A DNA stretch of 64,000 nt from Patescibacteria group bacterium. GTDB lineage: Bacteria; Patescibacteriota; Patescibacteriia; 2-12-FULL-60-25. The translations under genes were made by a program, and so were the position numbers. The notes below the pieces were generated by a model, which was given only the letters and a program-made list of their open reading frames with translations, searched no databases and was not told where the DNA came from. The DNA lies in the NCBI GenBank assembly GCA_031082005.1, contig JAVHLR010000001.1:377251-441250 (forward strand), read 5' to 3'. Shown here piece by piece: positions 55,090 to 55,651 of this stretch (its first letter is position 1; every line of letters starts with the position of its first letter).

Positions 55090-55118
55090 TTGCCGAATCA
55101 GGCCGGAATTGTTAATCT
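55090..55118 (+). promoter_or_regulatory. Promoter of the structured leader RNA and tRNA-Ser(GCT)
   Basis: TTGCCG, 17 nt, TAATCT, with a predicted start near 55125. The only other TTGAC-like element (55331) has no -10 before the tRNA, so the tRNA transcript probably begins here. Confidence 0.65.
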
Positions 55119-55124
55119 AGCCCC

Positions 55125-55350
55125 GCTCTGACGACCTCGGAGCGAAGCGACTTGCGAGCATCGCGAGCAAAGCGCAGGCCGCGACCGAAATGCAGCTAGT
55201 GCGCCGCGCACTAGCGGAATGCAGGTCGCAAGGCCGAGCACGGAGAGGTACCCAAGAGGGTTTGGTTCGAGCAAGCGCAGGACCAAACGGGTGGCAAAGG
55301 CCACCCCGGCAGACTCTTGGGCACAGATTTTTGACCGAGGCACTGCCGAG
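55125..55350 (+). ncRNA. Structured RNA leader upstream of tRNA-Ser (candidate new RNA)
   Basis: The 355-bp gap before the tRNA (55001-55355) has no gene but strong secondary structure. There is a GGCC-GCGACC/GGTCGC-AA-GGCC stem (55177-55186 with 55224-55235) capped by a perfect 9-bp hairpin (55195-55203 with 55207-55215). A three-way junction follows: outer stem CCCAAGAG/CTCTTGGG (55251-55258 with 55314-55321), arm GTTTGGT/ACCAAAC (55260-55266 with 55282-55288), arm GGGTGGC/GCCACCC (55289-55295 with 55300-55306, loop AAAG). GGAGAGGTACCCAAGAGG at 55242 repeats the first 18 nt of the tRNA. Confidence 0.6.
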
Positions 55351-55355
55351 AATGT

Positions 55356-55446
55356 GGAGAGGTACCCAAGAGGCTGAAGGGGGGAGATTGCTAATCTCCT
55401 AGGCGGGTCAAACCGCGCGAGGGTTCGAATCCCTCTCTCTCCGCCA
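55356..55446 (+). tRNA. tRNA-Ser (GCT)
   Basis: 91-nt class II tRNA with acceptor GGAGAGG/TCTCTCC, discriminator G, encoded CCA, a long variable arm and anticodon loop TTGCTAA. Confidence 0.95.
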
Positions 55447-55447
55447 G

Positions 55448-55479
55448 AAAGAATACTGCCCGAAAGGGCAGTATTCTTT
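55448..55479 (+). terminator. Terminator after tRNA-Ser
   Basis: A perfect 14-bp stem (AAAGAATACTGCCC arm) with a GAAA tetraloop, ending in ATTCTTTG. Confidence 0.85.
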
Positions 55480-55651
55480 GTTAATGAGTAAAAAAAGGTG
55501 AAGGCCTTGACCCTGGTCTGATTATGGATTTTCTTATTCAAAGTTATTTGATAAACTTCACTTCTTGACAGTGGCTAGTATTTAGGGACGACGTACGTCT
55601 CAAAAGATGATTTTATAAAACAATCTAATTTAATCATTAAGAAAAAATACT

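What the first reader, a model, noticed from the sequence alone, without database searches (positions are those of the whole stretch)
55090..55446. Structured leader RNA with its own promoter preceding tRNA-Ser(GCT)
A promoter at 55090-55118, a long hairpin with a perfect 9-bp cap, and a three-way junction of three perfect 7-8 bp stems fill the gap. A copy of the first 18 nt of the tRNA lies within it and could compete for the tRNA 3' acceptor strand, giving a folding switch. It does not match RNase P, tmRNA or SRP RNA by eye.
Basis: partly seen in the sequence, partly recalled or inferred. Interest (0 to 1): 0.7.

Follow-up and report, generated by a model that had tools for sequence, protein, structure and literature searches.

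The report
Guide-bearing insertion in a tRNA gene
In front of a serine tRNA gene of a tiny-genome bacterium lies an undescribed, structured ~100-base element that carries a copy of the tRNA's own start plus a matching 'guide' strand, and relatives of it sit in serine and leucine tRNA genes across the same bacterial phylum, each with a guide fitted to its own tRNA.

Summary
The 55119-55355 leader is a composite. Module A (55151-55241) is a long covarying hairpin ending 2 nt before the tRNA in relatives. Module B (55242-55355) starts with an exact copy of tRNA nt 1-18, then two hairpins, a strand CAG-A-CTCTTGGG, a U-run and a conserved tail. A covariance model of B finds relatives in 32 of 380 genomes of the class and in other classes of the phylum, nearly all directly before Ser or Leu tRNAs, each with the 5' copy of its own tRNA. 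Rfam has no match. The internal strand is complementary to the downstream tRNA across the junction, including +1 to +3, which the copy lacks (95/102 pairs; 64 expected; 0/20,000 permutations). A congener lacks exactly these 114 bp. Best reading: a small insertion element targeting tRNA genes at nt 18 (Ser) or nt 10 (Leu), with target duplication that spares the tRNA and a target-matching guide. Insertion pattern and guide match are shown; mechanism and mobilising enzyme are unknown. The promoter is the tRNA's own, conserved in four species.

The parts
55090..55118 (+). Promoter of the tRNA-Ser(GCT) unit: -35 TTGCCG (55090-55095), 17-bp spacer, -10 TAATCT (55113-55118)
   Evidence: Same box and spacing before the orthologous tRNA in G001, G002, G003; consensus scan alone finds nothing
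55124..55144 (+). Leader hairpin CGCTCTGA...TCGGAGCG upstream of module A
   Evidence: Fold
55151..55241 (+). Module A: long hairpin GCGCAGGC...GCCGAGC-AC ending 2 nt before a tRNA start; in relatives it abuts Ser, Tyr, Cys, Met, His, Gln, Phe and Leu tRNAs (2 nt off before one Ile)
   Evidence: Model R2, alignment A2, covariation
55242..55259 (+). Exact copy of tRNA-Ser nt 1-18 (left part of the duplicated target); 55251-55258 is the 5' strand of P1
   Evidence: Direct repeat D2, 100%; own-tRNA copies in relatives
55260..55355 (+). Module B element proper (96 nt); with one 18-nt repeat = 114-bp insertion
   Evidence: Model R1 match 55242-55355, 122.6 bits; absent in G001
55260..55288 (+). Hairpin PA (GTTTGGTTC/GGACCAAAC)
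   Evidence: Folds; 5 of 6 counted pairs have two-sided changes
55289..55306 (+). Hairpin PB (GGGTGGC-AAAG-GCCACCC)
   Evidence: Folds; covariation
55310..55321 (+). Guide strand CAG-A-CTCTTGGG: pairs with tRNA nt 10-17 (or with the copy, P1) and, by CAG, with tRNA nt 19-21 (CTG)
55308..55347 (+). P4: GGCAG (55308-55312) with CTGCC (55343-55347), pseudoknotted with P1
   Evidence: Two of five pairs with two-sided changes, 75% of cells paired: moderate support
55328..55355 (+). U-run and conserved tail TTTTTGACCGAGGCACTGCCGAGAATGT, ending at the tRNA
   Evidence: Alignment of the family; tail lacking in L057, L069, L073
55356..55446 (+). tRNA-Ser(GCT), intact
   Evidence: ARAGORN and Rfam
55448..55479 (+). 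Perfect 14-bp inverted repeat after the tRNA, probable terminator
   Evidence: Inverted repeat I4

Best explanation
Module B is a small (about 85-115 nt) structured insertion element specific for tRNA genes. It inserts after a GG in tRNA-Ser (after nt 18/19) or tRNA-Leu (after nt 10). The target stretch upstream of that point is present on both sides, so a complete tRNA remains on the right while promoter and first copy remain on the left. It carries a single-stranded guide (here CAG-A-CTCTTGGG) that base-pairs with the uninterrupted tRNA sequence on both sides of the insertion point; this guide is presumably how the element, as RNA or single-stranded DNA, finds its target. Afterwards it is transcribed as tRNA leader from the tRNA promoter and is presumably removed by RNase P. 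Shown: anatomy, covarying stems, insertion pattern, own-tRNA copies, guide match, one clean empty site. Inferred: that it moves, that the guide selects the target, that RNase P removes it. Unknown: the enzyme.
For: Clean empty site: G001 has the same module A directly followed by the same tRNA and lacks exactly 114 bp. Sporadic spread over the phylum with low copy number: 32/380 genomes of the class, further families outside it, including tandem remnants. Every Ser/Leu element with a recognisable copy begins with the 5' part of its own tRNA: 18-19 nt for Ser, 10 nt for Leu, ending ...GG. The same sequence motif (GAGTGG/GGTGG) at different tRNA positions argues for a sequence target. Direct repeats run into the tRNA's 5' flank in L046, L047, L053, L069 and others. 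Guide matches the intact target: +1..+3 paired 95/102, permutation mean 64, 0/20,000; with a target-independent anchor 20/30 full matches, mean 6.0, 0/50,000; on 15 distinct guide/target pairs 7 full, mean 1.7, 4/50,000. The guide triplet fits the tRNA (82/87) better than the element's own tail (56/87); in the four cases scored where copy and tRNA differ the guide never fits the copy better. G049: a shared block of about 150 bp with one mismatch before two different Ser tRNAs with unrelated upstream flanks. Promoter-like sites lie upstream of the left copy (mean 7.9 against 6.45 in shuffles, p 7.5e-5) and not in the element. In family f40, B-like cores also lie inside partial tRNA copies.
Against: No mobiliser found: the complete host genome has no Y1 transposase, reverse transcriptase or IS110 match, and G014, G035, G004 also lack all three. 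Module B has no terminal inverted repeats. The empty site could also be a deletion between the 18-bp repeats. The shared block in G049 could be gene conversion between two Ser tRNA genes. Guides stay matched in very divergent elements, and about nine elements replace two guide pairs by tandem G.A, which suggests selection on a structure kept in place rather than a passive footprint. Several f40 elements (L047, L062, L049, L053) and L052 do not have a guide matching the tRNA.
Confidence: 0.55

Rival explanations
1. Cis-acting leader RNA switch. The guide strand pairs either with the leader's own tRNA copy (P1, tRNA free to fold) or with the nascent tRNA D-arm and +1..+3 while the copy takes the 3' acceptor strand (tRNA misfolded), so the leader sets how much mature tRNA is made; the U-run may add pausing or attenuation.
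For: Predicted ensemble of B+tRNA puts the guide on the tRNA D-arm (P about 0.97) and the copy on the acceptor (P about 0.98). Leader-tRNA pairing is stronger with the cognate tRNA in 33 of 35 cases (-6.5 against -3.3 kcal/mol, Wilcoxon p 1e-8). Guide stays matched in divergent elements; U-run conserved; promoter upstream of the element.
Against: Sporadic presence, absence of exactly 114 bp in a congener; position differs between Ser (nt 18) and Leu (nt 10) tRNAs. The calculation ignores tRNA tertiary structure, modification, pseudoknots and co-transcriptional folding, and cognate pairing follows partly from the copy being identical. The spacer between P1 and the U-run is 4-6 nt, poor for an intrinsic terminator.
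Confidence: 0.25
2. Intron-like element: copy (tRNA 1-18) is a 5' exon, the guide works like the internal guide sequence of group I introns (P1 with the 5' exon, a P10-like triplet with the 3' exon), and the element plus the second 1-18 stretch is spliced out.
For: The guide is complementary to the joined exons in the P10-P1 order; elements without duplication occur inside tRNA-Leu and tRNA-Ser copies in G229.
Against: No group I core and no Rfam group I or II match. The intact downstream tRNA makes splicing unnecessary. In L117, L061 and L048 the copy's acceptor part has decayed although P1 is kept, so the copy need not build a tRNA. The G229 tRNA-Leu holding two elements has a mismatched acceptor and an intact neighbour.
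Confidence: 0.1
3. Neutral debris: a tandem duplication of the tRNA 5' end plus a palindromic repeat, without target recognition or function.
For: Direct repeats and tandem remnants would be expected.
Against: A covarying family across the phylum and the guide-to-tRNA match beyond the copy are not expected of debris.
Confidence: 0.05

Closest known systems
Integrative elements that insert in tRNA genes (tyrosine-integrase genomic islands; from general knowledge)
   Same: Site-specific insertion in a tRNA gene, with a duplicated stretch that leaves a complete tRNA
   Different: Here the 5' end (nt 1-18 or 1-10) is duplicated rather than the usual 3' end, the element is about 100 nt, encodes nothing, and carries a guide
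IS110 and its bridge RNA (PMC11208160); TIGR-Tas guides, found also in CPR bacteria (PMC12045711)
   Same: A structured nucleic acid with a programmable stretch matching a DNA target across the junction
   Different: No recombinase gene in the element; IS110 match in only 2 of 30 genomes tested, not in the host; one contiguous guide to one strand, no tandem guides seen
Group I and group II introns (P1/P10; EBS/IBS pairings; from general knowledge)
   Same: Internal guide pairs with sequence on both sides of the insertion point
   Different: No catalytic core, no Rfam match, target duplicated, no reverse transcriptase in the host
REP/MITE and IS200/IS605-derived palindromes (reviews PMC2229807, PMC10969869, seen as abstracts only)
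   Same: Small palindromic, non-coding, sporadic; IS200/IS605 ends use short guide pairing (general knowledge)
   Different: Tied to tRNA genes, guide of about 11 nt, 1-3 copies per genome in most hosts, no inverted repeats at the ends of module B, no Y1 transposase in the host
T-box and other leader riboswitches (general knowledge)
   Same: Leader RNA related to tRNA, alternative folds possible
   Different: Lies before the tRNA gene itself, pairs with the tRNA 5' half rather than anticodon and 3' end, no Rfam match

Membership tests
Rfam families (all 4227) | Score above the curated threshold | tested here: not met
   Only tRNAs in the window and in 20 homologous loci; nothing relevant at E<=10
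Module B family (this work) | PA, PB and P1 stems plus U-run and tail, before a Ser or Leu tRNA | tested here: met
   R1 122.6 bits, covariation
Module B family (this work) | Guide complementary to its own tRNA across the insertion point | tested here: met
   Window: CAG/CTG and CTCTTGGG/CCCAAGAG; family statistics
Group I / group II introns | Conserved catalytic core | tested here: not met
   No Rfam intron match at E<=10
Group I / group II introns | Spliced in vivo or in vitro | not testable with these tools
   No RNA data
IS200/IS605, REP | Y1 transposase in the same genome | tested here: not met
   None in G000, G002, G014, G026 and others
IS110 / bridge RNA | DEDD transposase in the same genome | tested here: not met
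   2 of 30 genomes, not the host
TnpB or IscB omega-RNA systems | TnpB or IscB gene in the same genome | not tested
   No search of these protein families was run; no HEARO (IscB RNA) match in Rfam
MITE | Terminal inverted repeats and short fixed target duplication | tested here: not met
   Ends of module B are not inverted repeats; duplication is 18-19, 10 or longer
Integrative elements in tRNA genes | Integrase-mediated insertion | not tested
   Integrase families were not searched
Cis-regulatory leader | Changes expression of the downstream tRNA | not testable with these tools
   Only predicted folds

The most novel reading that the evidence does not exclude
A new class of guide-programmed mobile element in Patescibacteria: a protein-free, about 100-nt structured RNA or single-stranded DNA that recognises a tRNA gene by an 11-13 nt guide spanning the insertion point, inserts with duplication of the tRNA's 5' end so that the essential tRNA survives, and has been re-programmed to Ser and Leu tRNAs many times.
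Probability: 0.35. Interest if true: 0.9.

Novelty: new variant of a known kind. Interest (0 to 1): 0.75.

Why it matters
Guide-programmed insertion is known from few systems, all with their own large enzymes. A minimal element whose guide tracks its target tRNA over a whole phylum of reduced-genome bacteria would be either a new kind of guided mobile element or a new way to control the output of single tRNA genes. Both readings are directly testable, and the alignment supplies many natural guide/target pairs for the test.

Tried and rejected
Known Rfam RNA: none. Phage origin: phage hits cover only the tRNA; no viral contig holds the conserved strings. Obvious mobilisers Y1, RVT_1, IS110: absent from the host. 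Intrinsic terminator at the U-run: spacing from P1 is 4-6 nt and the terminator scan finds none there; kept only as a minor idea. Guide copied mechanically from the target: disfavoured because the base opposite G(-1) is A in 19 of 34 and tandem G.A replaces two pairs in about nine. The stem P4 as the reason for the guide triplet: the tRNA explains it better. Literature searches found no description of this element; only open-licence PMC papers were searched.

Full report
What is there. The window lies in a complete-looking 1.31-Mb genome in 7 contigs whose relatives are Patescibacteria; records holding the conserved tail of the element are named Uhrbacteria, Parcubacteria group, Microgenomates and WS2. 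tRNA-Ser(GCT) is at 55356-55446. Its leader folds far better than shuffles on the sense strand (z -5.1). The promoter box TTG...-17-TAATCT is shared with the orthologous gene in three congeners. Rfam gives only the tRNA.

Two modules. BLAST against relatives and inspection of the hits split the leader. Module A is a long hairpin GCGCAGGC...GCCGAGC-A(C/T). Its model R2 hits 10 of 380 genomes, mostly in the host's family, and nearly all strong hits abut a tRNA (Ser, Tyr, Cys, Met, Gln, Phe, Leu; 2 nt off before one Ile; His by inspection), with three nearly alike copies before Cys, Met and Ser tRNAs in G019. Its stem covaries well. In the His case it ends at the extra base -1, the mature 5' end.

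Module B (55242-55355) begins with an exact copy of tRNA nt 1-18. Eight homologues gave a first alignment with covariation above nearly every control; model R1 then found 32 of 380 genomes of the class and seven more elsewhere in the phylum at E<=0.01 (at least two of the weakest, L121 and L122, look like chance matches). Almost all good matches stand 0-31 nt before a tRNA: Ser (GCT, TGA, CGA, GGA), Leu (CAG, TAA, CAA, TAG), and Gln in one genus. Each begins with the 5' end of its own tRNA, 18-19 nt in Ser and 10 nt in Leu, ending in GG. Because the two stopping points are at different places of the tRNA fold but at the same sequence motif, the sequence seems to be what is recognised. Repeats often reach into the 5' flank of the tRNA.

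The guide. Between PB and the U-run lies a strand complementary, without gaps, to the downstream tRNA from about -10 to +3 around the point where the copy stops. The part -10..-2 could be explained by pairing with the copy; the part +1..+3 could not, since those bases exist only in the tRNA. They pair in 95 of 102 cells (permutation mean 64.0, sd 3.5, 0/20,000). That register had been fitted with the target, so the test was repeated with an anchor that ignores the target (CCC-N-GG then three bases): 20 of 30 full matches against 6.0, and 7 of 15 distinct combinations against 1.7 (4/50,000). Related sequences are not independent, so these numbers overstate certainty, but about ten different target triplets occur in many families. 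The triplet fits the tRNA better than the element's own tail (82 against 56 of 87, with a crude tail pattern).

Insertion. G001, of the same genus, has the same module A joined directly to the same tRNA and lacks exactly 114 bp, the element plus one 18-nt repeat. G002 has B without A. G049 has a block of about 150 bp, one mismatch, before tRNA-Ser(CGA) and tRNA-Ser(GCT), with unrelated sequence further upstream. Promoter-like sites lie upstream of the left copy and not within the element. So promoter and first copy stay on the left and the complete tRNA on the right, as expected of an insertion into the tRNA gene. In family f40, B-like cores also occur inside partial tRNA copies: two in one tRNA-Leu, one in the variable arm of a Ser copy, one in the D-loop of an Ile copy.

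Mechanism. I favour a guide-matched insertion element (0.55). Against it, the host has no Y1 transposase, reverse transcriptase or IS110 (TnpB and integrases were not searched), and guides remain matched in divergent copies, with frequent tandem G.A and a regular A opposite G(-1), which points to selection on a structure in place. Splicing (0.10) fits the guide geometry but not the decayed copies.

Limits. Most genomes appear to be metagenome-assembled, one per species; the model was built mainly from the host's family and loses distant members; alignments and guide registers were partly hand-defined; no RNA data exist here.

Noticed in passing
window 55151-55241; L012, L076, L077, L111 (G019), L103, L109 (G022), L100, L110, L112: Module A is itself an undescribed covarying leader hairpin that abuts tRNAs of many kinds, with nearly alike copies before different tRNAs in one genome; its right end is the mature tRNA 5' end (including base -1 of tRNA-His in L083).
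   Followed up: partly
L013 minus strand, about 2050-1735 (G164): tRNA-Glu preceded by two tandem units and a partial one, each with GGCTCGTTCGTCTAAC (tRNA-Glu nt 1-16), two hairpins and a tail: a sister type of module B.
   Followed up: partly
L064 (minus strand) and L065: A different twin-hairpin element, TCCCGCC...GGCGGGA-CCCCGCC...GGTGGCGGGG, sits exactly in the T-loop of partial tRNA-Ile and tRNA-Arg copies, without target duplication.
   Followed up: no
L058 minus strand, 1492-1745 (G229): A tRNA-Leu(CAG) copy carrying two module-B-like cores, in the D-loop and the variable arm, shortly after an intact tRNA-Leu(CAG); G229 has about a dozen weak B-like matches, some in intergenic DNA.
   Followed up: partly
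window 55098-55541, minus strand: A 147-aa open frame antisense to the leader and tRNA; very likely spurious, of the kind often annotated over tRNA genes.
   Followed up: no
L044, L063, L066 (f40 genomes): B-like cores downstream of Glu, Ile and His tRNAs, next to inverted or partial tRNA fragments, with a further shared stretch (CCAGAAGCAA...CCGTGA) after the tail; the element may be longer there.
   Followed up: partly
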